Shown here: positions 5,648-64,000 of the stretch, piece by piece
Layout of the letters: every line of letters begins with the position of its first letter
Position numbering within the stretch: the stretch's first letter is position 1
Assembly (NCBI RefSeq): GCF_032884065.1
Contig: NC_088880.1
Coordinates: 23,041,696 to 23,105,695 of the forward strand
Reading direction: 5' to 3'
Length of the DNA stretch: 64,000 nt
DNA from: Artemia franciscana
Taxonomy: Eukaryota; Arthropoda; Branchiopoda; Anostraca; Artemiidae
The notes under the pieces: generated by a model
What the model saw: the letters and a program-made list of their open reading frames with translations, nothing else
Database searches by the model: none
Told to the model about the DNA's origin: nothing
Position numbers and translations under genes: made by a program

Positions 5648-8600
5648 GTAAGAGAAACTTTTTTTTTTGGTTTGGCTTTTATCCTTTTGGTTTGGCAAAT
5701 ATAAATTTTATCGCAGAAAATCTCCCGGGGTGCTTTAAAGTATGATTTTCAAGGATAACAATGTTGTTGCGATTAAAATCCTAAAGGAGTTGTTCTAGTG
5801 GAGGAAAGTGCTGTGCCGAGCTTTATGTGAGCTAAGCCCCCTGTCAAAGTCCTTTTGTCTTAATGTGAGTAAAGGAGGTAGGGAACTGAATGAAAAAGAA
5901 TCGGTGATGCTTTACTGAAAGAACTGGTGTGACTGACGCTGTGGCGCTATCCGGCAGCGGTAAAAAAAAGAACTAAATTCATCACAAGGTTAAATTTTTA
6001 GTTTATTTTAGTTTGAGCTCATTTTCAATTTATTGAATATTATATTTCAATTAAAATACAAAGTAAAGTGAAGTCAAGGTAGTCCAAGATTCACACTGAA
6101 GAAAGTCATCGCAATAGATAAAAATTGGCAAATTCTACCGATCAGCAATCTTACTTGCCGGTATATTCGTACAGGATTCGTATTTCATCCAGTTCGTAGC
6201 TCACAATAGTTCTCCCCATTGCTGTTGCTTAGAAAAAAAAATGGCTGCTGCTGTTGGGTAGAAAAAGTTGCAAAAAAGACGTTATACTTGTTAGTACTTC
6301 CTGCTCAATGAATCGTTTAACGATAATGCGCTGACTTATTGAAGAATAATGCGTCTTTCATTTGTTATTGTTTGGTGTTTTCTTTGTGGCCCTTATCGTT
6401 TATAAGAAAAAGTCGAGGAAACCCAAGGGAGGGCTCATTTGGTTTGAAATTCAGAGTTATAGTGGCGTTTCTAAGGGTCAAAATTGATTGGACATAACCA
6501 GCCACCCTTTGCTGTTCTTGTCTTGTTGTCCCACATCACTTCATCTCAAAAAGTTCCAAATTGTCCAAATAGCCCATTTAAAAAAGAAGATTCAGTGATA
6601 AATTTTATAAAAAATGCGGACATTCTACTGCTTGTTGAAATGAGGACTAACTTCATGTGTATAAAAATTGTGACCCTGTATTAACTCGTGGTCGTTCAAA
6701 GACCATTTAACGATTATAATTGGAGATATGAAAGAAGCCCTAGTGTCTAGCTCTTCCCAGTTTTATAAATAAGGTGGGTATGTTGTACTTTGCTGAATTG
6801 AGGGTTGTTTAAAGATATAAGTCTACAGAATTGCTTGTTTCCGGGGTATAAAGTCTCCTTCCCCCCTCACCTCCATTCCTAGCTGCATAATTATAGACAT
6901 GTTACACCTCTTTCGGTTCTTGACCCTTCAGAGATGAATGAATGAATGGTCTGTACGTGCCCAAAACGTGTCTTAACCAAAGGCGATAAGTATATATTTC
7001 ATACTTAGCGTTTTATTTCCATTAAATTTGCTATTTATTGGTTTTTAGAATCGCTAAATCCAAAAAATCTTGTTGTTTTAACACCGATTAAAGACTTAGC
7101 TCATTTGAGCACTGAGTCAGTACTTGGCTCTCTTTTGTACTAATTCAAATTATCTGCTCTTTGTTTACATTATTATAGGAATTTATTTTTGCCGGGATTT
7201 ATACTTATTTTAGGTTTAATATGGCCTATCCTTTTCTGTGAAAAACGTCTTCTCCGGAATTTTTTTTTTAACTAAATTTTGTTCGTTCTTGATTGCCAAA
7301 GTTCTAAATTTTTCATAAATTTAAAATCAAATGATTTTTTTTTACGTCGAAGTAACACTATCAAAATAACAAAGTATAGAAGTTCTTGAGTTCTAGAAGT
7401 TCGTTCTTGATTGCCAAAGTTCTAAATTTTTCATAATTTTCAAAATCAAATTTTTTTTTTTCGACATCAAAGTAACACTATCAAAATAACAAAGTATAGA
7501 AGTAAAGGAAGGAGTAAACAAGTTAACAAAAATGACGCTGTAGGCTTTAGACTTTTACAGTTATGGAAGAAGGCAGTAGCCAAACTCTTGTTTGTAGTGA
7601 TTTTTGTCCGTTTTAAGCTTGAATTGCATATTTAATTTAAGTTTTCATCGTTTTAAGATTTATTTATTATTTATAAATTAACTAGGACCTATTGTATGCT
7701 TGTTTGCTATGATTGTTTATTTAGTTTCTATTCGTTTTGTGTCTTTTATTCTTTAATAGTGAATTCTGGGCGTTTTGAGTTTGAATTATTATAGGAATTT
7801 ATTTCCCCTGATCTTCAGTTTAATATGGACTTTACTTTTCTTTGAAAAATTTCTTTTCTAGAAAGTTTTTTTTTTTAATTAATCTCTATAAAATACGACT
7901 TGCCCCATATAACCTTCTAAAATGCGTTTTTATGGCACTTGGTATTAACCAAGTGACATAAAGCAATCGCAAATTCTGTCGGTCCCGGTTTTGCTACTTT
8001 AGGCACTTCCAGGTAAGCTAGGACGATGAAATTTGGCAAGCGTATCAGGGACCGGACCAGATTAAATTAGAAATAGTCGTTTTCCCCCATTTGACCATCT
8101 GGGAGGGAGTGGGGGCCCGTTAATTCGGAAAAAATAGAAAAATTGAAGTGTTTTTAACTTACGGACGGTTTATCAGATCTTAATGAAATTTGATGTTTGG
8201 AAGGATACCATGTCTCAAAGTTGTTATTTTAAATCCCGATTGAATCTGGTGACATTGGGGGGGGGGGGGTTGGGAGGGGAAACCTAAAATCTTGGAAAAC
8301 ACTTAGAGTGGAGGGATCGGGATGAAACTTGGTGGGAAAAATAAGCACAAGTCCTAGATACATGATTAACATAACCGGAACGGATCCACTCTCTTTGGGG
8401 TAGTTGGGGGGGGGGGTTGTTAATTCTGAAAAATTAGAAAAAAATGAGGTATTTTTAACCTACGAACGGGTGATCGGATCTCAATGAAATTTGATATTTA
8501 GAAGGATATCGTGTCTCAGAGCTCTTATTTTAAATCCCGGCCTGATCTGGTGACATTGAGGGGGGGATTGGGAGGGGGAAACCTAAAACTTGGAAAACAC

Positions 8601-10852
8601 TTAGAGTGGAGGGATCGGGATGAAACTTGGTGGGAAAAATAAGCACAAGTCCTAGATACATGATTGACATAACCGGAACGGATCCGCTCTCTTTGGGGTA
8701 GTTGGGGGGGTGTTAATTCTGAAAAATTAAAAATAATGAGGTATTTTTAACTTACGAACGGGTGATCGGATCTCAATGAAATTTGATATTTAGAAGGATA
8801 TCGTGTCTCAAAGCTCTAAATCCCGACCGGATCTGGTGACATTGGGGCGAGTTTGGGGTGGGGGAACCTAAAATCATGAAAACACTATATTGGAGGGATT
8901 GGGATGAAACTTGATGGGAAAAAATAAGCAGAAGTCTTAGATACGTGATTTATATAATTGTAACGAATCCGCTCTATTGGGAGGGGGGGGGGTTAAATCT
9001 AAAAAATTAGAACAAAATGACATATTTTTAACTTGGGAAGGAGTGATCGGATCGTCATGAAACTTCATATTTAGAAGAACCTCGTAACTCAGATCTATTA
9101 TTTTTAAATCTCAACCGGATCAAGTGTAATTTGGGGGGGGGGGCAGTTTGGGGGGGACCGGAAATCTTAGAAAATACTTAAAGCTGTGAGATCAGGATGA
9201 AACTGGTTGGGAAGAATAGAAACCTGTCTGAGATGCATGATTTACATAACCGAACCGGATATGCTCTTCTTTGGTGGAGTGGGGGGGGAGTAATTTTGAA
9301 ATTGAGGTTTTGTAACTTACAAAAGGGTGGCCAGATCTTAATCAAATTTGATATTTAGAAGGATCTTGTGCTTTAAAGCTCTAATTTTAAATTCCGACCA
9401 GATCCTGTGACATTGGAGGGAGTTGGAGGGGGGAAACTGGAATTCTTGGGAAAACGTGAAAATTGGGGTATTTTTATCTTACGAATAGGTGATCGGATCT
9501 TAATAAAATTTGATATTTAGAAGGAATTCATGTCTCAAAGCTCTTATTTCAAATCCCGACCAGATCTTTTGACATTGGGGGGGGAGTTGGAGGGAGAAAT
9601 CTTGGAAACACTTGGAGTGGAGGAATCAGGATGAAGCTTGGTGGATAGAAGAAAGCAAATGTCCTTGATACGTTATTGACAGAACCGTACTGGATTCGCT
9701 CTTTTTGGGGGAGTTGGGGGAGGGGTTCAGTGATTTGGCGAGTTTGGCGCTTCTGGACGTGCTAGGACGATGAAAATTGGTAGGCGTGTCAGGGAGCTGC
9801 ACAATTTGACTTGATAAAATCGTTTTCCCCAGATTCGACCATCTGGGGGGCTATTAATTATAATAGATATTTTGTAATATAAATAGATATTTTTATTGTT
9901 TATATGTTCCATGTCTTTTGTTATATTCTATGTATATTTTATTTGTTTTTATTACATACTATTTATATGTTTTTATTACATATTATTTATATGTAAACAT
10001 ATAAACGTTGCAACAGTTCTATTTTAGGAGTCTAAGAACTGAGGTTTCTTTCGGAATAATTTGAGTGACATGGCTCTTGTAAGCAGATATAAAACAAAAT
10101 TGTACAATTTAGTTCAAGAATTATTATTATTATTCTTGTAATTCTTGTAATTCATTATTCTTGTAATTCTTGTAAAAGAATAATTATTATAATTCTTGAG
10201 CAAGGTTCAAGAATTATTGAACGGTTAATATACCCGTACTGCATGTTTCTTTTCTTAAAACATGATTTCATTATTTTATTACAAATCATCTGTTTGTGAT
10301 TTGCTAAACTGATAAATCAGTTTAACACATTTAAAAAAGATCTATGCTTCTATGCTTGGATGGATATGGATTTCTATGCTTTCTCCAAATTCTACAAATT
10401 CTAGATGGTTTTTTTTTCGCTAGGTGAAGTAATCGACCATGTTAGTGTAAATACTTTGTGTTGATACTAGTTCATTAATTTATATTTTTTTTTTAGGTAT
10501 CGACATAACTAATTTTAGCAGCTCATGGGCAGATGGACTGGCTCTTTTCCCGCCTTGCTTCATACATTCCTTCCTGATAAAATTCCTTTTGACACATTGA
10601 AAGCTTGTGATCCTAGAACAAATTTTGAAGCCGTTTTTAAAGTGGCTGAAGAAGAGGGAATCCCGACTATGCTCGTAAGTTATTTTCTCTCTCCTCTCCT
10701 CTCTCTCTCTCTCTCTCCTCTCTCCTCTCTCTCTCCTCTCTCTCTCTCTCTCTTTCTCTCTCCTCTCTCTCCTCTCTCTCTCCTCTCTCTCTCTTTCTCT
10801 CTTTCTCTCTTTCCTCTCTCCTCTCTCTCTCCTCTCTCCTCTCCTCTCTCTC

Positions 10853-17596: not shown

Positions 17597-38830
<21,234 letters not shown>

Positions 38831-38869: not shown

Positions 38870-40448
38870 CACTTTTTAGAAACTAAATGCCAAAATGATA
38901 TTCAGTAGGTGATAAATACAAAATTACAAAGGTAATAAACATAGTAGATGGTAATTACTGTACGGTAATTAATTGATAAAGCACAGTCGTTAACGAACGA
39001 TTGATTTCAGCTTTCCACAATGTAAAAAAATTTAATTTTTTCTAAATAAGGTCAAAGAGAAATCTAACACGTAGTTGCTTGTTAAAAAAAGAGGTGGTCT
39101 TATTGGTGCTGGTTCTGGCCTCTCTTGCGCCCAGCGCAGAATCTTGATTACCCCGCCTCCTATCTCCCACAAAATTTTCAGGCTAAATCTTAACAAAATT
39201 TTCATTTATTAACAAGATTATTTTAAATCTCTGGATCAATTAGTTAACTTATTTTTCAGTTATAACTTAACTTAGTAGTTAAATTATTCAGTTTTAATTA
39301 ATTATTTTAACTTTATCTGTTTAACTTATTACTTTAACTGTTGTTATTTAATTATTTTCTATTTAACTTTATTTTATTAATAATTTGTTAATCATTTCAT
39401 TTATTAACTGAGCTCACTACTTTATTCATAAAATTTCAAAAATTGTAAAATGATTATAACCGTTAGATTATTAGTATGAAATTTTGCGCCCCTTAAATTT
39501 CTTAAACTTCTTTCATCCTTCACTTGGGGCAAGTACCCCTTCCTGTCCCTCCCCTAAATCCGTCTCTGGGTCATATACCTGGGGTAGGGTTTTTTTTTGT
39601 CTCTCAGGGAAGCTAGAAGTTCAGACGGGTTTACAATGGGGGAACTTTCAATATACAATTATAAATCTTTTAGAAACTCAAACCAGTTTAATTGTCAGCA
39701 AATCACTACATTTTCTTAATTCTACTGAATTCCGAGCGAGAAAAATCGTTTTATTTAAATCGATAATTTAAAATCTACGAGACACAAGATGCGAGACTCT
39801 CCGATTCAGCCTCTTATTTAAGTGGTTCTTATACCATCTTGCTAGGACTCTTGGTCCAAAATAGTGAGACTTCTGGGTTGCGTAAATGAAACTGTAACCA
39901 AAGAATCAATGGCTATCCTATGCTCTCCCTTTACAAACCTGCTATTTTCAATCTCAAACAGTTGCATAAAATGAGCTGATTTTCATTAGTTACCACAGCA
40001 AAACACACATGTTACAACTTATAAATATATTACCTAAATTTAGACTTTAATATCTGTGTATTATTTTGACAAAAATAAATTGAAGTATAATTCAATTTTT
40101 GGCAACTATGCTGTCACTAATCTTCCGGGTTTAATGCTCCAAGTTGGTATTAAAGACCGTTAAAGAAACTGAACCGATTAATGATTATATGCCAAATTGA
40201 TGTTGTGATCTTTGATCCGCTGCAGATCATTTGGAAGAAACTAAATAGCCAATTTTCACAACATGTGCTTGCCATGTGTGCTCATAAAGCTGCTACCGTG
40301 TTTCACATCACGTGTTTCCATCAAGTTATTCACTTTCGTTGTGCATCAAATTTCAATTCTTATCGAAGTAACATCATTTATTTACCCTAGAAGGTTCTTC
40401 AAAAATACATTTTCACCGCATAAAATAGTTTTCGAGCTATATATATAT
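38870..40448. other. Upstream region of the protease gene, nothing recognised
   Basis: AT-rich, with runs of TTAATTA-like low complexity at 39240-39420. No exon seen on either strand. Confidence 0.45.
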
Positions 40449-42203
40449 TAAATAAAAAAAAACTAATTTTTTTAGCTGAAAGTAAGGAGCGACATTAAAA
40501 CATAAAACGAACAGAAATTACTCCGTATATGAAATGGGTTGTCCCCTCCGCAGTCCCACGCTCTTTACGCTAAAGTTTTTAATTGTTTTAAAAGGTAGAA
40601 TTGTGGCAAAGAGTCAAACTTTAGCGTAAAGAGCGAGGGACTGCGGAGGGGACAACCCATTTCATATACGGAGTAATTTCTGTTCGTTTTATGTTTTAAT
40701 GTCGCTCCTTACTTTCAGCTAAAAAAATTAGTTTTTTTTTATTTAATTTCTGAACGTTTTTGAACTAATGCATGTTTGGTTTTGGCTCTCCGCACATAAA
40801 TTATTAAAATGAAATTTATATATTAATTCTTTTTTTGGCTAAATGGCTTTCTCTTAGTTTTGATCAGACGATTTTGAGAAATAAGGGGTGGAGAAGGAGG
40901 CCTAGTTACCCTCAAATTTTTTTGTTACTTAAAAAGGCGACTAGAACTTTTAATTTTTAACGACCGTTTTTATTAGTAAAAAATATACGTAACTGAAGAA
41001 TTAACTTACGTAACAAACTTTCATAACCTTATATTTTTATTATGTATACGAAGGGGTTTGTACCCTCGTTAATACCTCGCTCTTTACACTAAATCGTAAG
41101 TTTTGTCCCAATTCTTTAAGAATGACCCCTGAATCAGAAAGGCGTTAGAATAAATAGTTGAAATTACTAAAAATACTTTAGCATAAAGAGCAAGGTATTT
41201 ATCTTCTCCTAAATACCTCGCTCTTTATGCTAAAGTATTCTTAGAACCCGTCATATGCGGAATAATCTCTTTTCGTTTTAAGTTTCAATACTACTTCTTC
41301 CTTTCATTTGAAAAAACGTTTTCATGTTTATTTTTCATTGTTTTCTTACAGTGATGCTAGAGAATCCTGCGCCCTTTTCATTGAATTTTTATTCCCCCAT
41401 GACAGATTCCTCCAAGGAAAGATCCTCCAACATAGCCCCCTCTCCTCAGCCCCACCCCCAAACAAAATAAAATCCCCCTGAAAACGTCTGTACACTTCCC
41501 AATAACCATTACTATATCTAAACACTGGTCAAAGTTTGTAACTTGCAGCCCCTCCCCCAGGGATTGTGGGGGAGTAAGTCATCCCCAAAGACATAGTTAT
41601 TATGGTTTTCGACTATGCTGAACAAAATGGATATCTCAAAATTTTAATCCGTTGACTTTTGGAAAAAAATGAGCGTGGGAGGGGGCCTAGATGCCCTCCA
41701 ATTTCTTTGGTCACTTAAAAAGGGCACTAGAACTTTTCATTTCCGTCAGAATGAGCCCTCTTGCGACATTCTAGGACCACTTGGTCGATGCGATGACCCC
41801 TGGGGAAAAGAAAAAAAAAACAAAAAAACAAAAAAACAAATAAACACGCACCCGTGATTTGTCTTCTGGCAAAAAATACAAAATTCCACATTTTTGTAGA
41901 TAGGAGCTTGAAACTGCTACAGTAGGGTTCTCTGATACGCTGAATCTGATGGTGTGATTTTCGTTAAGATCCTAAGACTTTTAGGGGGTGTTTCCCCCTA
42001 TTTTCCTAAATAAGGCAAATTTTCTCAGGCTCGTAACTTTTGATGGGTAAGACTAAACTTGATGAAACTTATATATTTAAAATCAGCATTAATATGCGAT
42101 TCTTTTGATGTAGCTATTGATATCAAACTTCAATTTTTTAGAGTTTTGGTTACTATTGAGCCGGGTCGCTCCTTACTACAGTTCGTTACCACGAACTGTT
42201 TGA
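40449..42203 (+). mobile_element. Non-coding foldback element, copy 2
   Basis: Same structure and orientation as 20826-22554, with high similarity by eye along its length. Large inverted repeat (arms 40449-40575 and 40619-40745), 43-nt loop 40576-40618, third partial arm near 41175-41330, 3' GGTCGCTCCTTAC and terminal hairpin. The loop is in the opposite orientation to copy 1 although the arms and the remaining 1.4 kb are not inverted. Confidence 0.8.
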
Positions 42204-43500
42204 TACATATTTATTTTACCAAAAGAGCAAATCTTCTTTTTCTAATTGAGAATGTCTCACGTGTCATTGTTATTGGGTTGGAGGAGGAGCTTTCGCAGCT
42301 GTGCTGGCCTCAAACAGCTTGGTGATGTGGTGAGTTATTAGTAGTAGTTAGTAGTATAATGCTATTTGTGTGTTATCTTTATTTCCATGGCCGGAAGAGT
42401 GTTTACAAAACTATGAACGACATCTGGTGTTTTGCGACTCTTTTTTTTATTGTAATAATGAGAATTATTAATTTAACTAGTTTGTTTGGTAAAATTACGG
42501 TAGTAATAAATATCTAATTTGAGTACCTTAAAGAAAAATGATTACAGAGCTGGAAAATGTCAAGGATCGCCATATGCTAGATGGCGTCGATGGGTTTTTT
42601 TTCTGGAGACACTAGCACCAGTTCTATTCTTGTAAGTTACCCATACTCTTTTGATAAGAAACTAAATTCAAATTGACAAAATGACCAAGGTAATGTATAT
42701 GCTACCAATGGGCTACATTCCACCACCACTACCTTAATGGCGTTTTAATAATCTGATCTGGATAGATTGCCGTCGATTACTGATAATAGTTTAAGGTTTT
42801 TAGTGGCTATCAGCGGGAGGTTCCTGAAAAGCAGCCTTGTAGAGTGAAAAAAAAATTAGATGGCTGTATTTTTTTTTGTATATTGAAATTGTAATTTTTC
42901 AACGCGAGCACTTTGTAGTAATTCTTAGTAAATTGTAAGTCCATTTGTGTTTAGCGTGATTGTATATTATCGTCGTGGCCCATGCAGCCAAAACTAAAAA
43001 ATGTGATTTTAAGGAAACTGTCTAACCACAAACATTTTCCAATTAAGTTTGTAAATAGTAATTCTCATTCGTATTGAATTGAACAGGAATTTCAAGTTAT
43101 CGGATGAAATATTTTCTGAATTACGAAAAAGAACGTAAAATCCATAAAAATGTTATCAAATCAAAGTAAAAGTGTACAATATTGAAATCACCATTGTCAA
43201 AAAACCTTGAACTGAAGGTTTACAGTTCCTCACCTTAAACAACAAGGAAGATTTTTGCATGGATAGCAATGATGCGTCTCGCTTTTTTCCACTTCTCCAT
43301 TCCCCGGTTTAATCTCATCAAACCAACCATAGGCAGCGCAATAGCGCTGCCAAAGGAAAGAGCGATGTTGGCACAATGTATTACTTACTTACTTTTATTT
43401 ATTTATTTATTTCTTTTAGACCAGGGCACTTCTTATCAAGGAGTTGTCGTAGAAACTTTGAAAAAGGGCTCATGTGATCGAAAATTGAAAGAGCTAGTAC
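42204..43500. other. No recognised gene; GC hairpin at about 43333-43352
   Basis: Mostly AT-rich sequence. GGCAGCGCAATAGCGCTGCC at about 43333-43352 is an 8-bp-arm hairpin. Nearly the same hairpin, in reverse orientation with the flanking word CTATGG, occurs at 58911-58932, so it belongs to a dispersed element. Confidence 0.5.
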
Positions 43501-43900
43501 CCTTTTTCGTGGTCCTAAGTGATTGAAGGGCGACCAACCCCCCCCCCCCATGCTCAACAATTGCTCAAAGACATCCAACCAAAATTTTAAGATAAGAACC
43601 TTTTAACGTAATTAAAAAGTCCGGTAATTATATCTTTGAGGATGCCAACCCCCCGACAGCCCTCTGAGCAAGGGTCGTAAGTTATGCCCTGGGGGCATAT
43701 AAGGTTCTTATAGAAAGGGTGGTCGTATAAATTTCGGAAGGGACTCGCTGGATTGGTGATCAGAAATTCTAGTGCCCTTTTTGAAATTCAAAGTGATCGA
43801 AGGACGGATACCTCCCACACCTCTTATTTTTCCCGGAAAGTAGTGATGGGGTTCCGGTTTTGGGAAGTACCATAGGGGTAAACCTGAAGTTGCTAGGCCC
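43500..43900. repeat. Probable dispersed repeat fragment
   Basis: Two partly similar blocks (TCCTAAGTGATTGAAGGGCG near 43513 and AAAGTGATCGAAGGACGGAT near 43790) with C/G runs; no coding sense. Family unknown. Confidence 0.35.
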
Positions 43901-49215: not shown

Positions 49216-52200
49216 TTAACTGCGTAAAACTTGCGAATATACAACATTCTTCGCTGTCCAATTGTCGCTGCATATAAATAGATTGTCAGGTTTACCGACC
49301 CTCGAACATGCAACGTACAATTGTCCATGGGAAAAACAATCAGTATTAAGATCTATACCACATTTTTCTAATGATTGACCTTGAGCTTTGTTAATGGTGA
49401 TTGCAAATGCTAATCGAATTGGGAATTGCAATCTTTTAAATTGAAAAGGCAGATCCGTTGGAATCATGGGAATGCGAGGAATAAGAACAGCCTCACCCTC
49501 AAAAGGCCCTGTCAAGATTGTGGCCTCTATTAGGTTTTCCATTGTTTTTTTTACGGCAAGTCGAGTGCCATTGCAAAGCTTTGGTGGGTTTATATTTCTT
49601 AAAAGTATTATTGGTACGCCTATTTTTAGTTGTAGCACGTGTGGTGGAAACCCTGAAAGATCTATGGAATTTAAAAATTCAGATGGATAATTAACCGCTT
49701 CATTTGGTTCCAAAACTGTGTTGACTGACTTGTAAAGGACTGCCTGGTCTCGAATCTTGGTCAAAACAATATTGTTGATTTCGTGGACGTCTATATTTTT
49801 GGGTGCGAGAATCGTTCTTTCACTTAGCCATTTATTATTTTTATAATTTTTTAGAATATTCGGAAATACTTTTTCAATCAATTCATTTTTGGACGTCACT
49901 AAATTAAAGAAATCAGCAGGTAGTTGTATACGTCCTGAAATTGAGTCTACTGGGAGCTTTCTGTTTCCAATTGCCAGCAATTGATCTGAAAATGTTTGAC
50001 CAGAGTCATCGTTTTGCAATCGGACACGCATATTTGTAGTTAATTTTAATATTTTTACGTGTGCCCATAAATTAGAATTTTTCAGGCAAGCATTCATTTC
50101 GTCTGCAGGAGTTGATCTAGGTATTATAGGTAATGTTTGCCTGAAATCTCCCGCAAGCAATATTAATGTGCTGCCAAAGGGTTTCGACTTCCCTCTCAAA
50201 TCTTTCAAGCATTGATCCAGAGCCTCGAGCGATTTTTTGTGTGCCATTGTGCACTCATCCCAAATAATAAGTTTGCATTGCTGCAATACTTTACCCATCC
50301 CAGATGATTTGGAAATATTGCACGTGGGAGTTTCTGTAGAATGCAAATTCAGAGGCAATTTCAAAGCGGAATGAGCAGTTCTTCCACCAGGCAGCAATGT
50401 TGCGGCTATTCCGGACGACGCAATTGCCAACGCTATATCATTTTTTGATCAAATTGATGCCAGAATCAGTTTTATCACAAATGTTTTACCAGTACCTCCT
50501 GGCGCATCCAAAAAGAAAATTTCTCCAACGTTGTTATCGACACAATGCATTATCGTATCATAAATGTCTTTTTGTTCCGATGTTAACTTGGAAATGTTAT
50601 TTTGTACATACGACAATAGATCACTCGTACTGTAACTTTGTTCACGATCCAATTCTACACATGTCGAAACAGCAGCGATACGGTTAGGTGAAGGCATTCC
50701 CAAATCCTGAAGAGGTTTGTTTGCCATACGTACGCACAAATCTTCTATAATAACTAAAGTGTAGTTATAAATTTCTGATGTAAAATCAAAAGTCATATCT
50801 GACGTCTCTAACTGTTTTCGATGGAGTATATCTTCGGACATTTTTGACTTATATTTTTCCCATAACTCTGTAGGAGCTGATGGAGAGCAAGTTGTTAAAA
50901 TGATGCCAAACAATGCACGAATTTGACTTGGGGTTGACGTTTCGCACGCGTCATTGATGCAGTTATCCCAGTGTTGGTCATTCTCCAATAAATTCAGAGC
51001 TTGGCATGCACTACGGTAAGTGTCATGTATAGTACCGTTTACAGTTCTCAAATACTCAAAGGATGTCGGACCGGGTACATTCACCAAAAGCAGGCGTAGA
51101 AAGAAGCATTCATGTTGATTTAGGGTGAACGGTGTAGAGTCTTCCTATCGTGGTATCTTTGAAGATGGTAGGTTGGCCGTCGACTGACTTACCCTGTTTT
51201 CGACGTTCAAATACTTTATTTTTAGTATTCCACGTGTAATACGAAGGCACTTCAGTATACAGCAGTTTTTTTGCAAAAGAATCATTTTTGCAAAGCGAAA
51301 AAAAAGCTGTTAATGTTGTATCCGGTGGATTCAGGACTCTTTGTTGCACGTTGGTTTCCGTGAAATAAACACGTTGACCATTCTGTAAATGTACCGCTAA
51401 GTGAACAACAGCTGGACTACGTTCATGTATCGGAAATGAAAGAATTCGCCAAACAGCTTCATTACTGCTTATGTATCTTCCAGCCTGATATTGTACGATT
51501 TCGTCGAAATCTTTGATTTCGGGCTGCAAGCCAAAAACTGCCATGTCACTGCCTTTGTTGACGTATTTACATATGTATTTGATTGCCTTTACGGAGTTAC
51601 AGTATTCAACGTTTATGTGTGCATTAAATGTTTTTGATAATAATGGGGAATATGGAACAACCCACTGGTTATCTACTTCGATGGTGGTACCGTTACGCTT
51701 CTTTATTATTGCTGTTTTACCGCCATCTTCAGTAGATCTTCTTCTATATTGTGGGTAATCATCATTGTCAGTAATTGTGTTTGATACTAAAAGTCGAGGA
51801 TATTGCTTTGTGCACCTTCCTTTGGCCATGCATGGTGAATTTTCGTTCAGTGCACCGCAAGGTCCATGTATCATATTTTTTACAATAATATCATGTAACC
51901 CCTTATCGACATTTTTATCAGGTATTTCAGCGGAAATCACATCATCAATTTCGTTCGAAGTAATTTTTTTATGTAGCCAGATTAGTATATGTGTGTGTTG
52001 CAAACCTCGTTTTTGCCATTCCACTGAGTACATCCAGCATCGCACTGACCCAAACACTTCAAGTTTTACTATGTAGTTTATCAGTGATTTCAACTTTTGC
52101 CGGAAGACACGGGCCGTAATGTCATGCCTATGAACCGCCGATTGTCCTTGAAGTAAAAGCTGCAGTATCTCGTCCCAAGATTGATTACATGTAAATGTAA

Positions 52201-53929
52201 TAAATAAATCTGGACGACCATAGAGACGAACATACGCAATAGCATCTTGAGCATATTCATGCATATGACGGGGACTGCCAGCATATGACGAAGGTAAAAT
52301 TGTTAATCTTCCAACGTTTGTGGTATTACCGTCATTTATAACTGCATCTCGCAAATGAATGTATTGTTCAGAGCGGAGCTTGGTCTGATTCAAGCGGATA
52401 TATAGCAAACGTTCTGATTCAATTTTAGCATACATATCAACGACAAATTGGTGAAACAGTTCACGGCATTTTAAAATATAATTTTCTTCATCCTGCCGAA
52501 TCATTAGTCTATAAGAATAATAATGCATTGCACTGCATTTCTTATTCATTTCTTTGTTAGTGGCTGGATTCATCAATTTAATATTAAAGTGATAGCCATC
52601 GGCTCCATCCCAAAAAATGATAGGATATTGTAGGGCATCGTAGCATCGATGAGTTTCAGCAATTCTTAACAACTGAGCGTTTCGCTTATGAAGAATAATA
52701 TCTCGAGGTAAAAACTGATCACCGACCATAACGATTGCCACTTTGTCGATAGTTGGAGCATTGTATCTACGCACATGTTGGCCAGGAGGCGTTTTGTCAG
52801 CGGAAATAACAATTTTATGCGTATCAGTAGGCATCAAATCGATGGCTGTTTTGAACAGACGCACTAAATTATTATTTTCGTGGAAAAGATGTTGCAATTG
52901 GGAAACGATTGTCCTTTCAACGTTGGGAGAAATTTCGCAACGTGCATTCAATTCAGAATTTCTATCACTGATGAAGTACAATTGTAAAAATTTATGATTC
53001 TCGCCTGAGAATGGTAGAAGGGACCCGGCTCTATGATAAATTTGCCCTTTTACTTTGAAAGTAGACATAAATTGATCTGGATTTTCGATTTGGGCTCCAA
53101 ACGACGTCATTTGAAAACATGAGTTGTATTTTCTGATTTGTGACAAAAAACGCTTAGGTTCTGACGTAGTTCCAGTAAGGAAAGTCTTCAATGGCTCTGG
53201 TGGTGCAGCCAATAGAGGAAGTTTAACTTTTCCTGAGGCGCAACACATTCCCATTGTTTCACCATTGAATTTCAAGGCCTTGCAATAGGGACAAATTTTA
53301 GACATTGTCCCGATTTGAACACATCTACTCAAGCTATAATCATCGACTGCGTTGTACCTGAATGCCAGGCGATAACTTTCAGGTTGCTCTGATTCCTCGG
53401 CACGCTTTCTTTTCTTACTTTCTCTATCAGCAGCAAGCCTGATTTCTTGCTGTTCTTGTGATTCCTCGGCACGCTTTCTTTTCATACTTTCTCTATCAGC
53501 AGCAAGCCTGATTTCTTGCTGTTCTTGTAATTCCTCGGCACGCCTTCTTTTTTCACTTTCTCTTTTAGCAGCAAGTCTGCTTCCGCGTTGCTCTGGTAGT
53601 TCCTCGGCACGCTTTCTGTTCTTTCTTTCTCTATCAGCCTCAAGCCTGTTTCCTTGCTGTTCTTTTGATTCCTCGGCACGCTTTCTGTTCTTTCTTTCTC
53701 TATCAGCATCAAGCCTGTTTCCTTGCTGTTCTTTTGATTCCTCGGCACGCTTTCTGTTCTTTCTTTCTCTATCAGCCTCAAGCCTGTTTCCTTGCTGTTC
53801 TTTTGATTCCTCGGCACGCTTTCTTTTCTGACTTTCTCTATCAGCAGCAAGTTTTTTGGCATAGACTCTTTGAGCATCTTCATCGGCTTTTGCCATTGTA
53901 AGTTCATCAGTCATTTTGAACTTAAACAT
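49216..53929 (-). pseudogene. Helitron Rep-helicase (RepHel), two disabling lesions
   Basis: About 1,570 codons. From the ATG at 53929: a charged coiled-coil of seven 23-residue repeats (residues about 25-190); a Cys-rich motif CPYCKALKF...MCCASG (about 205-235); the Helitron-like region with FITFTCNQSWDEI (about 570); the HUH nuclease motif HTHILIWL (about 645); the Tyr motif YICKYVNKG (about 785). After a +1 frameshift near 51120 (HPK instead of continuing into HECFFLRLLLVNVPGP) come the Pif1-type helicase Walker A DAPGGTGKT (near 50490), a TGA stop at 50451-50449, Walker B IIWDEC (near 50260), GDFRQTLPI, and the C-terminal INKAQGQSLEKCGIDL and LYVACSRVG. The stop lies in the same frame on both sides and reads as CGA to TGA. 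The Tyr and His residues needed for Rep are present. Confidence 0.93.
53360..53880 (-). repeat. 69-bp tandem repeat within the RepHel N terminus
   Basis: Seven in-frame copies of a 23-residue unit (RKRAEESKEQQGNRLEADRE plus RKN), 69 bp apart. Highly charged, predicted coiled coil. It expands and contracts in whole codons. Confidence 0.93.
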
Positions 53930-56659: not shown

Positions 56660-56885
56660 TATATATATCAGATAATTCGTAGCAACAAACTATAAGTAAG
56701 GAGTCATTTGTACTAATAGTAACCAGAGCCCTATGAAAATGAGTTTTCATAGCAATATACGCAATAAAAGAATCCACTTTGTATGTTGAATCCAAATATG
56801 TAATACTCATTAAGCTTAAAGTTATCCAGCAAAAATTTTGAGCCTGAGAAAATTTCCCCCATTTAAGAAAAAACAAGGACCACTC
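56660..56885 (-). mobile_element. Old, diverged 3' fragment of the foldback element
   Basis: Read on the minus strand it retains the end of the element: GAGCCTGAGAAAATTT (as its complement), the ATTCCAAATATGTAAT block, AATAGTAACC, GTAAGGAGTCA and a decayed terminal hairpin (ATTCGTAGCAACAAAC). Far more diverged than the copies at 20826 and 40449. Confidence 0.65.
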
Positions 56886-61659: not shown

Positions 61660-62110
61660 AGCTATCAAACAATTCGTAGTAATGACCTTGAGGGACTCGG
61701 GCCAATAGTAACTGAAACACTCAAGTATAAACGGAATCTTGATAACAGTTTCTTAGATAAAAAGAAATTGGTATGTTATGCTGATTCCAAATATGTAACA
61801 TCTATGGAGTTCAATGTAACCCATTGAAACATAGGAGCCAGAATAAATCTGCCTGATTTTTCAAAAAGGAGGAAAACATCATCAAAAAGCCCAGCAATCT
61901 TAATGAAAATCACACCTTTTTACCTCCAGCATATCAGAGAACTATACTGTAGACGTTCAAAGTTTCTATCTACAAAAATTTTGGAATTTGGCATATTTTT
62001 TTCCGCAGAAGAAAGGGTACGAATTCGCGTACTTATTTGTTCTTTTTTCATGAGTGATTGTATCAGAAGTTCGGAAGACAGCGGACGGACTCCGCGGACG
62101 GAAGACAGAC
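61660..62110 (-). mobile_element. Old, diverged copy of the foldback element
   Basis: The minus strand carries the element's 3' part: AACAATTCGTAGTAATGACC (hairpin remnant), CAATAGTAACTGAAACACTC, GCTGATTCCAAATATGTAAC, CATCTATGGAGTTCAATGTA, and further in 'AATGAAAATCACACC', 'CAGAGAACTATACTGTAG' and 'TCTATCTACAAAAATTTTGG', each matching 22230-22554 in reverse. Confidence 0.65.
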
Positions 62111-63269: not shown

Positions 63270-64000
63270 GCACTAAGCATAAACAAGAGCTAAGAGCTCA
63301 TATGGGACTTGTGGCGAGGCAGGACGAGCCAAGAGCTCATATGGTATGAGCTCTGGCAAAATTCTAAGAATCAATATATTGATTTAAAAGGAAAATCGGA
63401 GGCTTAATGCTGGTCGGGATTTAAAATAAGAGCTCTGAGTCACGAGGTCCTTCTAAGTATAAAAATTCATGAAGATTCGATCACCCACTCGTAAGTAATA
63501 AATACCTCATTTGTTCTACTTTTTCCTCTCCCTTCAGCCCCCCAGATGGTCTAATCGGGGAAAGGACTTTATCAAGTCAATTTGTGCAGCTCCCGGACAC
63601 GCCTACCAATGTCCATCGTCCTAGCACGTCCAGAAGCACCAAACTCGCCAAAGCACTGAACCCACCCCCTAACTCCCCCAAAGAGAGTAGATCCAGTACG
63701 GTTACGTCAATCACGTATCTGTGACATTTCCTTATTCTACCCACCAAGTCTCATCCCGATTTCTCTACTCTAAGCGTTTTCCAAGATTTCCGGTTTCCCC
63801 CTCGAACTCCCCCGCCAGTGTCAACAGATCTGGTCGGGATTTGAAATAAGAGCCCTGAAACATGAGTTCCTTCTAAATATCAAATTTCATTAAGATCTGG
63901 TCACCCGTTCTTAAGTTAAAAATTCCTCAATTTTTTTTTTAATTTTTCCAAATGAACACCCCACAGCTCCTCCAAAGTGAACAGATCCGTTCCAATTATG
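63270..64000 (-). repeat. Inverted copy of the dispersed G-rich repeat, continuing off the window
   Basis: The minus strand has the same block order as 5000-5320 and 37390-37890: the double GAGCTCATATG motif, GTCGGGATTTAAAATAAGAG, GATCACCCACTCGTAAG, CCCCAGATGGTC, CATCGTCCTAGCACGTCCAG, then the unit found in the 7950-9870 array. The right end is cut by the window. Confidence 0.8.

What the first reader, a model, noticed from the sequence alone, without database searches (positions are those of the whole stretch)
40576..40618. The 43-nt loop of the foldback element is flipped between its two long copies
In copy 1 (loop 20952-20994) and copy 2 (loop 40576-40618) the element arms and the 1.4 kb beyond them run in the same direction. 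The 43-nt loop does not: copy 2 matches the reverse complement of copy 1 at 40 of 43 positions by eye (for example TTTGACTCTTTGCCACAATT in copy 1 against AATTGTGGCAAAGAGTCAAA in copy 2). Loop length is identical. This fits inversion by recombination between the arms, a template switch during replication, or two source isomers that coexist, as in a flip-flop terminus.
Basis: seen in the sequence. Interest (0 to 1): 0.7.

Follow-up and report, generated by a model that had tools for sequence, protein, structure and literature searches.

The report
Transposon end palindrome with inverting loop
A very abundant mobile DNA element in a brine shrimp genome starts with a long hairpin-forming palindrome whose small central loop has been turned around, and passed between element lineages, several times during its evolution, which makes its copies a natural record of errors made when hairpin DNA is copied.

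Summary
Loop 40576-40618 matches the reverse complement of loop 20952-20994 at 40 of 43 positions (16 of 43 directly), while arms and body run in the same direction. Both copies belong to a huge family of ~1.75 kb elements in the Artemia franciscana genome (identified by scaffold lengths). Each has a left palindrome of two ~127-bp arms around the loop, a small right-end hairpin and, at two empty sites, no target-site duplication, as in rolling-circle elements. Both loop orientations are common: 1,302 against 4,623 exact-motif hits. On a tree of 61 bodies orientation follows lineage: 4 changes, all forced by supported branches, about 14 if shuffled; one origin is rejected. Flipping is real, recurrent and rare, not a flip-flop at each cycle. 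The palindrome is also exchanged: copy 2's core equals that of an opposite-orientation lineage, and L081 carries copy 2's whole 299-nt palindrome exactly reversed on a 9% different body. Older arm variants tend to sit in both arms, and 92 places carry the body motif on both sides. This fits template switching inside the palindrome, known from yeast and chloroplast hairpins.

The parts
20825..22554 (+). Copy 1 of the element, whole (TTAAAT...CTGTTTGA); loop in minority orientation (ori1)
   Evidence: pairwise alignment and ends shared with many copies
20825..20951 (+). Copy 1 left (outer) palindrome arm
20952..20994 (+). Copy 1 loop, 43 nt
20995..21123 (+). Copy 1 right (body-side) palindrome arm
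40448..42203 (+). Copy 2 of the element, whole; loop in majority orientation (ori2); body without substitutions from that of L077, so probably a very young insertion
40448..40575 (+). Copy 2 left (outer) palindrome arm; mismatch marker at 40558
40576..40618 (+). Copy 2 loop, 43 nt, reverse complement of copy 1's loop at 40 of 43
40619..40746 (+). Copy 2 right (body-side) palindrome arm
   Evidence: DNA fold of 40523-40670 -67.3 kcal/mol, z -19
40448..40746 (+). Whole palindrome of copy 2 (299 nt); L081 carries its exact reverse complement (299 of 299) on another body lineage
40541..40653 (+). Inner core of copy 2 (35 nt arm + loop + 35 nt arm), identical to that of L023, an element of the opposite orientation with another body lineage
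40481..40493 (-). Subterminal motif GTCGCTCCTTACT (read on the minus strand), inverted relative to the copy at 42165
42165..42177 (+). Subterminal motif GTCGCTCCTTACT at the right end (copy 1: 22516-22528, with 20857-20869 on the minus strand)
42179..42198 (+). Right-end hairpin CAGTTCGTTACCACGAACTG, 5 nt before the right end (copy 1: 22530-22549)
   Evidence: fold -8.8 kcal/mol, z about -3
41167..41244 (.). Second, internal palindrome of the body (copy 1: 21544-21621)
   Evidence: fold of 41160-41250, z -10.9
61663..62046 (-). Old relative of the right part of the element (about 70% identity); others at 56661-56871 (-) and 43394-43594 (-)

Best explanation
The element is a non-autonomous, rolling-circle-like transposon whose left end is a ~300-nt palindrome. 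When source elements are copied, the growing strand occasionally jumps from one palindrome arm to the matching arm on the other strand, or on another element, because the two arms offer the same sequence in both directions. If the jump happens before the loop and the strand later returns, the loop and the inner arms come out reversed. If it happens after the loop, or within one strand, one arm is rewritten from the other. If it lands on another element, a foreign palindrome or core is imported, in either orientation. If it does not return in time, it runs on into the body and leaves an inverted piece of body outside the palindrome. Rearranged copies then transpose and found subfamilies. Shown here: both orientations, several orientation changes on the body tree, covariation of the two arms that is strongest for common (older) variants, palindrome exchange between body lineages, and inverted body outside the palindrome in one copy read in full. 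Inferred: that the step is polymerase template switching, and that it happens in source elements during copying or transposition. In the window, copy 1 most likely descends from a flipped lineage. Copy 2 has the majority orientation with a core like that of an opposite-orientation lineage.
For: Both orientations genome-wide, 1,302 and 4,623 hits, controls 0. Sample of 67 scorable copies: 17 and 50. Tree of 61 bodies: 4 changes, all forced by starred branches, bootstrap range 4-4, AU test against one origin p 1.25e-11. Variants found in both arms of the same copy: 75, against a shuffled mean of 11.6 and maximum of 31 in 1000. The both-arm share rises from 7 of 95 occurrences for variants seen in one copy to 39 of 83 for variants in 6 or more copies. 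Copy 2's inner core has 0 differences of 113 from L023 (opposite orientation), while its seven nearest outer arms and eight nearest bodies are majority-orientation copies. L081 carries the exact reverse complement of copy 2's palindrome (299 of 299) on a body 129 substitutions from copy 2's and 17 from L023's. L055 (ori2) has an inner core identical to L009 and L049 (ori1), and its group is sister to their clade with full support. One copy has 95 bp of inverted body beyond the palindrome, and 92 places have the body motif on both sides at palindrome distance. Template switching is reported to give both arm homogenisation and spacer inversion in yeast (PMC8604942, abstract and passages).
Against: No reads or second assembly were examined, so no flip was seen happening. 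Double-strand-break repair with gene conversion or crossover between arms predicts most of the same patterns. Own two arms differ on average by 3.7 sites, barely less than from the nearest body relative (4.1); the own arm is closer in 30 of 63 copies, tied in 14 and farther in 19, and mean arm identity within copies (0.945) equals that between right arms of different copies (0.946). So homogenisation is clear only for common variants, and some of those may be recurrent mutations. For copy 2's subfamily the only hit in the other orientation is a two-sided copy. Palindrome exchange means that the four orientation changes need not be four separate inversions (L042 may have received an already flipped core). 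The pairing of copy 1 with L061 is weak (97/42), although their group with L017 is well supported (99/95). The precedent in yeast concerns inverted spacers with 2-5 substitutions.
Confidence: 0.6

Rival explanations
1. Homologous recombination in double-stranded DNA: crossover between the two arms of one element, or gene conversion between elements after breakage at the palindrome, inverts or replaces the core without any polymerase jump.
For: Long, near-identical arms are good recombination substrates. Exchange between lineages looks like conversion tracts with both ends inside the arms (copy 2) or covering the whole palindrome (L081).
Against: It does not by itself explain inverted body run-on in the copy L078/L082 and perhaps at other places, nor why both-arm variants are common rather than private if breakage also acts on inserted copies.
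Confidence: 0.27
2. Flip-flop terminus: the palindrome is copied by a rolling-hairpin step at each transposition, so the loop turns about half the time, as in parvovirus ends (recalled).
For: Terminal position; arms identical but for one marker site in young copies; both isomers abundant.
Against: Orientation is conserved in clades: 12 copies in one clade all ori1, 4 changes against about 14 shuffled. The one CTACC-loop, copy-2-body hit in the other orientation is the two-sided copy.
Confidence: 0.06
3. Several separate old events fixed by chance and spread only by ordinary recombination of whole element halves (left palindrome joined to a different body), with no special role of the palindrome.
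For: L042 can be explained by one exchange between palindrome and body.
Against: Copy 2 has foreign-type sequence in the core with its own lineage's type of outer arms on both sides. A simple joining of halves would keep the donor's orientation, but L081's palindrome is reversed.
Confidence: 0.05
4. Assembly error: identical arms let the assembler place the loop in either direction.
For: The window contains a 100-N gap, and palindromes are hard to assemble.
Against: Random errors would not follow body lineage (0 of 500 shuffles as low). The assembly used PacBio long reads (PMC11492255, passages). The arm marker is phased with the loop in copies of both orientations.
Confidence: 0.02

Closest known systems
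Template switching between inverted-repeat arms with spacer inversion (S. cerevisiae; Abraham and Hazkani-Covo 2021, PMC8604942, abstract and passages read)
   Same: Arm homogenisation and spacer inversion together; recurrent and reversible; intermolecular switch proposed for the inversion.
   Different: There: protein-coding genes of yeast strains, inverted spacers with 2-5 substitutions, arms over 9 bp. Here: a 43-nt spacer in ~127-bp arms at a transposon end, with exchange between element lineages and thousands of copies.
Hairpin-loop minute inversions in chloroplast DNA (Kelchner and Wendel 1996, not read; described in PMC6005162, passages read)
   Same: Loop between inverted repeats turned around, homoplasious between relatives.
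   Different: Short stems in a plastid genome; no mobile element, no subfamily founding, no core transfer in what was read.
HINE / DINE-1, non-autonomous Helentrons (PMC4067079 and PMC7492417, passages read)
   Same: No long reading frame; subterminal inverted repeat of 13 bp; small hairpin near the right end; no target-site duplication at two empty sites; very high copy number.
   Different: Large left palindrome with loop; right end TTTGA; insertion next to an A downstream of a YYYTT motif rather than between two Ts; no Helentron partner looked for.
Parvovirus / AAV terminal flip and flop (recalled, no call)
   Same: Terminal palindrome in two orientations.
   Different: There both isomers arise at each replication; here orientation is inherited by lineage.
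Foldback (FB-like) transposons (recalled; search listings only)
   Same: Long inverted repeats and fold-back structure.
   Different: Here the large inverted repeat lies at one end; the self-comparison showed no long inverted match between the two ends, only the 13-bp motif was found.

Membership tests
HINE (non-autonomous Helentron) | Subterminal inverted repeats of about 11-15 bp | tested here: met
   13-bp GTCGCTCCTTACT, minus strand at 20857 and 40481, plus strand at 22516 and 42165; but 32-33 nt from the left end, while PMC4067079 gives about 2-4 nt for mite HINEs
HINE (non-autonomous Helentron) | Short palindrome near the 3' end | tested here: met
   CAGTTCGTTACCACGAACTG 5 nt from the right end in both window copies, and found with up to 4 errors in 43 of 51 sampled copies read far enough
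HINE (non-autonomous Helentron) | No target-site duplication; insertion between two Ts | tested here: inconclusive
   Two empty sites (L033, L034) rejoin with no duplication beyond a possible single A, but the sites read A-T and A-A, not T-T
HINE (non-autonomous Helentron) | Shares ends with an autonomous Helentron (Rep/helicase with endonuclease) | not tested
   No partner was searched for. The Helitron at 49216-53929 ends in CTAG and does not share the ends
Canonical Helitron | Ends TC...CTRR, insertion between A and T (recalled) | tested here: not met
   Ends are TTAAAT...CTGTTTGA
Template-switch spacer inversion | Arms homogenised and spacer inverted relative to relatives | tested here: met
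   arms: (common variants; not seen in the plain identity comparison); spacer:
Template-switch spacer inversion | Event caused by DNA polymerase switching | not testable with these tools
   sequence patterns only
Flip-flop (rolling-hairpin) terminus | Both isomers in similar numbers within each lineage | tested here: not met
   for one young subfamily (the matching majority count did not complete)

The most novel reading that the evidence does not exclude
The left end is not just inherited but rebuilt: during transposition one arm of the terminal palindrome is newly synthesised by fold-back copying of the other, stopping at a defined point. Arm identity, loop flips, import of foreign palindromes and run-on into the body would then be normal by-products of how this element makes its 5' end, that is, a rolling-circle-type transposon with a hairpin-templated terminus.
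Probability: 0.18. Interest if true: 0.75.

Novelty: new variant of a known kind. Interest (0 to 1): 0.52.

Why it matters
Loop inversion by template switching has been described for short hairpins one at a time. Here thousands of copies with a flanking body give lineage, orientation, arm markers and run-on in the same sequences, so rates and mechanisms of palindrome copying in an animal genome could be measured. It also shows that a transposon's terminal palindrome can move between subfamilies as a cassette, so phylogenies built on element ends can mislead.

Tried and rejected
Copies in other collections: no hit with one or two exact patterns in viral contigs and genome contigs, nor with copy 2 by blastn in phages and plasmids; these tools say that records near the window's own genome may be left out. 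A paper search for six motifs of the element as text found none. A first orientation scoring with a loose body motif (4-5 errors) gave false two-sided calls because the arm holds a similar word (TTTCTGTTCG); it was replaced by at most 3 errors in a fixed window. The simple comparison of own arms with other copies did not show homogenisation (mean identity 0.945 within copies, 0.946 between right arms); counting variants present in both arms did. The idea that the window's Helitron drives the element was dropped because the ends differ. Assembly error and flip-flop at each cycle were rejected.

Rows dropped: of 79 loop hits read (73 of the places listed, a capped list, four more divergent hits in the same stretches, and the two window copies), 12 had no body motif in range and were not scored. 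Six partial or long-branch bodies were left out of the careful tree, and four copies with broken arms were left out of the arm count. Apart from the window copies the sample comes from one scaffold (C1) and is not random. L069-L082 were chosen by pattern (orientation, loop variant), so the tree is not an unbiased count. Two-sided copies (up to 92) can be counted in both orientations. Some listed hits carry the 24-mer in otherwise different arms, so the T-marked core is not one pure lineage.

Full report
Observation. Loop 40576-40618 equals the reverse complement of loop 20952-20994 at 40 of 43 positions and matches directly at 16. The copies are collinear from 20825 to 22554 and from 40448 to 42203 (88.7%). 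The left ~300 nt are a near-perfect palindrome. Of 8 variable sites in 111 arm positions, 5 differ between the copies in both arms at once.

Organism. Two scaffold lengths of the searched genome, 67,337,973 (C2) and 45,252,357 (C17), equal the longest scaffold and the scaffold N50 printed in the Artemia franciscana assembly paper PMC11492255 (passages read). That assembly is 1.27 Gb with 21 chromosomes and used PacBio, linked reads and Hi-C; Helitrons make up 8.81%. The search tool's G000 has 1,270,528,402 bases in 6,468 contigs; the paper gives 6,486 scaffolds and 1,270,721,445 bp, and C1 (71.5 Mb) is longer than its stated longest scaffold. So it is this assembly or a close version of it.

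Element. The loop 20-mer occurs 7,792 + 7,868 times with up to 2 mismatches (control 3 + 3). Full copies start TTAAAT and end CTGTTTGA (some lineages vary), with a small hairpin before the right end, found in 43 of the 51 sampled copies read far enough, and a 13-bp motif inverted near both ends of the window copies. No open reading frame of 130 aa or more lies within either window copy (the one that overlaps copy 1, 20258..20842, ends in its first 18 nt). Joined flanks of L034 are found letter for letter in copy 2, and those of L033 with one substitution, so these two insertions, both into other copies of the family, made no target-site duplication beyond a possible single A. In 67 left flanks (from 80 copies, pattern-chosen ones included) there is a YYYTT motif at -12 to -8 and an A at -1 in 64. 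This is rolling-circle-like anatomy closest to HINEs (PMC4067079 and PMC7492417, passages read), but membership is not established.

Orientation genome-wide. Using the same 20-mer of the loop and a body motif on the right, ori1 (as copy 1) gives 649 + 653 = 1,302 hits and ori2 (as copy 2) 2,347 + 2,276 = 4,623, controls 0. Up to 92 copies with the body motif on both sides may count in both.

Orientation and lineage. From 73 of the places listed on C1 and the window, 79 loop hits were read; 67 could be scored, 17 ori1 and 50 ori2. On a first tree of 67 bodies orientation needs 5 changes, 4 forced. On a careful tree of 61 bodies it needs 4, all forced by starred branches, against a shuffled mean of about 14 (0 of 500 as low); holding all ori1 together is rejected (p 1.25e-11). 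The ori1 lineages on it are a clade of 12, whose sister group is 3 ori2 copies; copy 1 and L061, in a well supported group with ori2 L017 (99/95) but weakly joined to each other (97/42); L025_3846; and L042. The tree has no outgroup, so that ori2 is ancestral rests only on its being the majority on most branches.

What moves. Arms read outward from the loop show a T 18 nt from the loop, next to the loop's AAAAA end, in most of the ori1 clade. Copy 2's inner core is identical over 113 nt to that of L023, of the ori1 clade, while its outer arms and body are nearest to ori2 copies. Genome-wide a 24-mer with this T and the loop's AAAAA end occurs 736 times in ori1 and 81 times in ori2, controls 0. 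Eleven of the listed ori2 hits have copy 2's CTACC loop; bodies of eight of these, copy 2 included, were read. Seven differ by 0-6 substitutions in about 1,440 (copy 2 and L077 by none), and one, L079, has another body. L081 has a 299-nt palindrome that is the exact reverse complement of copy 2's (299 of 299; direct alignment 270), on a body of the ori1 clade, 17 substitutions from L023 and 129 from copy 2. So both a core inside the arms and a whole palindrome are shared between body lineages in reversed orientation. Which lineage was donor is not shown. For copy 2's subfamily itself, the only hit in the other orientation is the two-sided copy; the matching majority count did not complete by the machine.

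Arms. In 63 copies, 75 variants lie in both arms of the same copy, against 11.6 expected by shuffling (maximum 31 of 1,000), and 233 lie in one arm only. The both-arm share of occurrences is 7 of 95 for variants seen in one copy (4 of the 7 in the divergent L017_2182), 4 of 42 for two, 25 of 88 for three to five and 39 of 83 for six or more. Inserted copies thus diverge arm by arm, and homogenisation seems to belong to the lineages that transposed. Against this, the own second arm is closer than the nearest relative's arm in only 30 of 63 copies (14 ties, 19 farther), and plain arm identity is no higher within than between copies.

Run-on. At C2:11806357-11806679 a copy-2-type element carries, outside its palindrome, 95 bp of inverted body identical to six members of its subfamily (one mismatch to its own body), followed by unrelated DNA. 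A self-complementary pattern finds 92 places with the body motif on both sides at palindrome distance, some of them clustered duplicates.

Reading. Template switching between inverted-repeat arms is reported to cause both arm homogenisation and spacer inversion, recurrently and reversibly (PMC8604942, abstract and passages), and hairpin-loop inversions in plastids are homoplasious (PMC6005162, passages). In bird nuclear introns recurrent microinversions were not tied to stem-loops (PMC3123225, passages). The Artemia family shows both signatures, plus exchange between elements and run-on, which one mechanism explains. Break-induced recombination remains possible. A flip at each cycle and assembly error do not fit the lineage pattern. 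A search for papers with at least four of six terms (Helitron, palindrome, hairpin, loop orientation and others) gave one unrelated listing, and the listings on foldback elements (20 of 299 papers; 12 of 14) showed nothing of this kind by title and abstract start; these cover only the open-licence library.

Noticed in passing
49216-53929 (-): Helitron with Rep (Helitron_like_N) and PIF1 helicase domains; the helicase is split over two reading frames, and the start of the Rep ORF holds a 69-nt tandem repeat (53390-53851). Its 3' end looks canonical (hairpin, CTAG).
   Followed up: partly
left flanks of 67 copies: Insertion-site preference: YYYTT at -12 to -8 and A at -1 before the left end; unlike the TT preference of Helentrons.
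   Followed up: partly
L009, L013, L015, L020, L023, L036, L043-L045, L049, L055 right ends: Members of the ori1 clade and one sister copy share extra sequence beyond the usual right end (TTTGAAAAGAAAATAATTCGG...), as if the element had gained a new end by reading past its terminator.
   Followed up: no
C1:19.18-19.28 Mb and C4:0.93 Mb: Two-sided palindromes repeated at short distances, probably segmental or tandem duplications carrying one such copy.
   Followed up: no
18678-20083 and 20349-20684: 54-copy 26-bp minisatellite followed by a 336-bp (AT)n run directly upstream of copy 1.
   Followed up: no
8119-9420 with inverted relatives at 63280-63940: 292-bp tandem repeat with related inverted copies about 54 kb away and relatives at 37657-37885.
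   Followed up: no
L007: Palindrome joined to what looks like the right part of the body with the middle missing: probably an internally deleted derivative.
   Followed up: no
L047 and L050: Two copies with the same flanks about 230 kb apart on C1, i.e. a duplicated locus; both have the same loop orientation.
   Followed up: no
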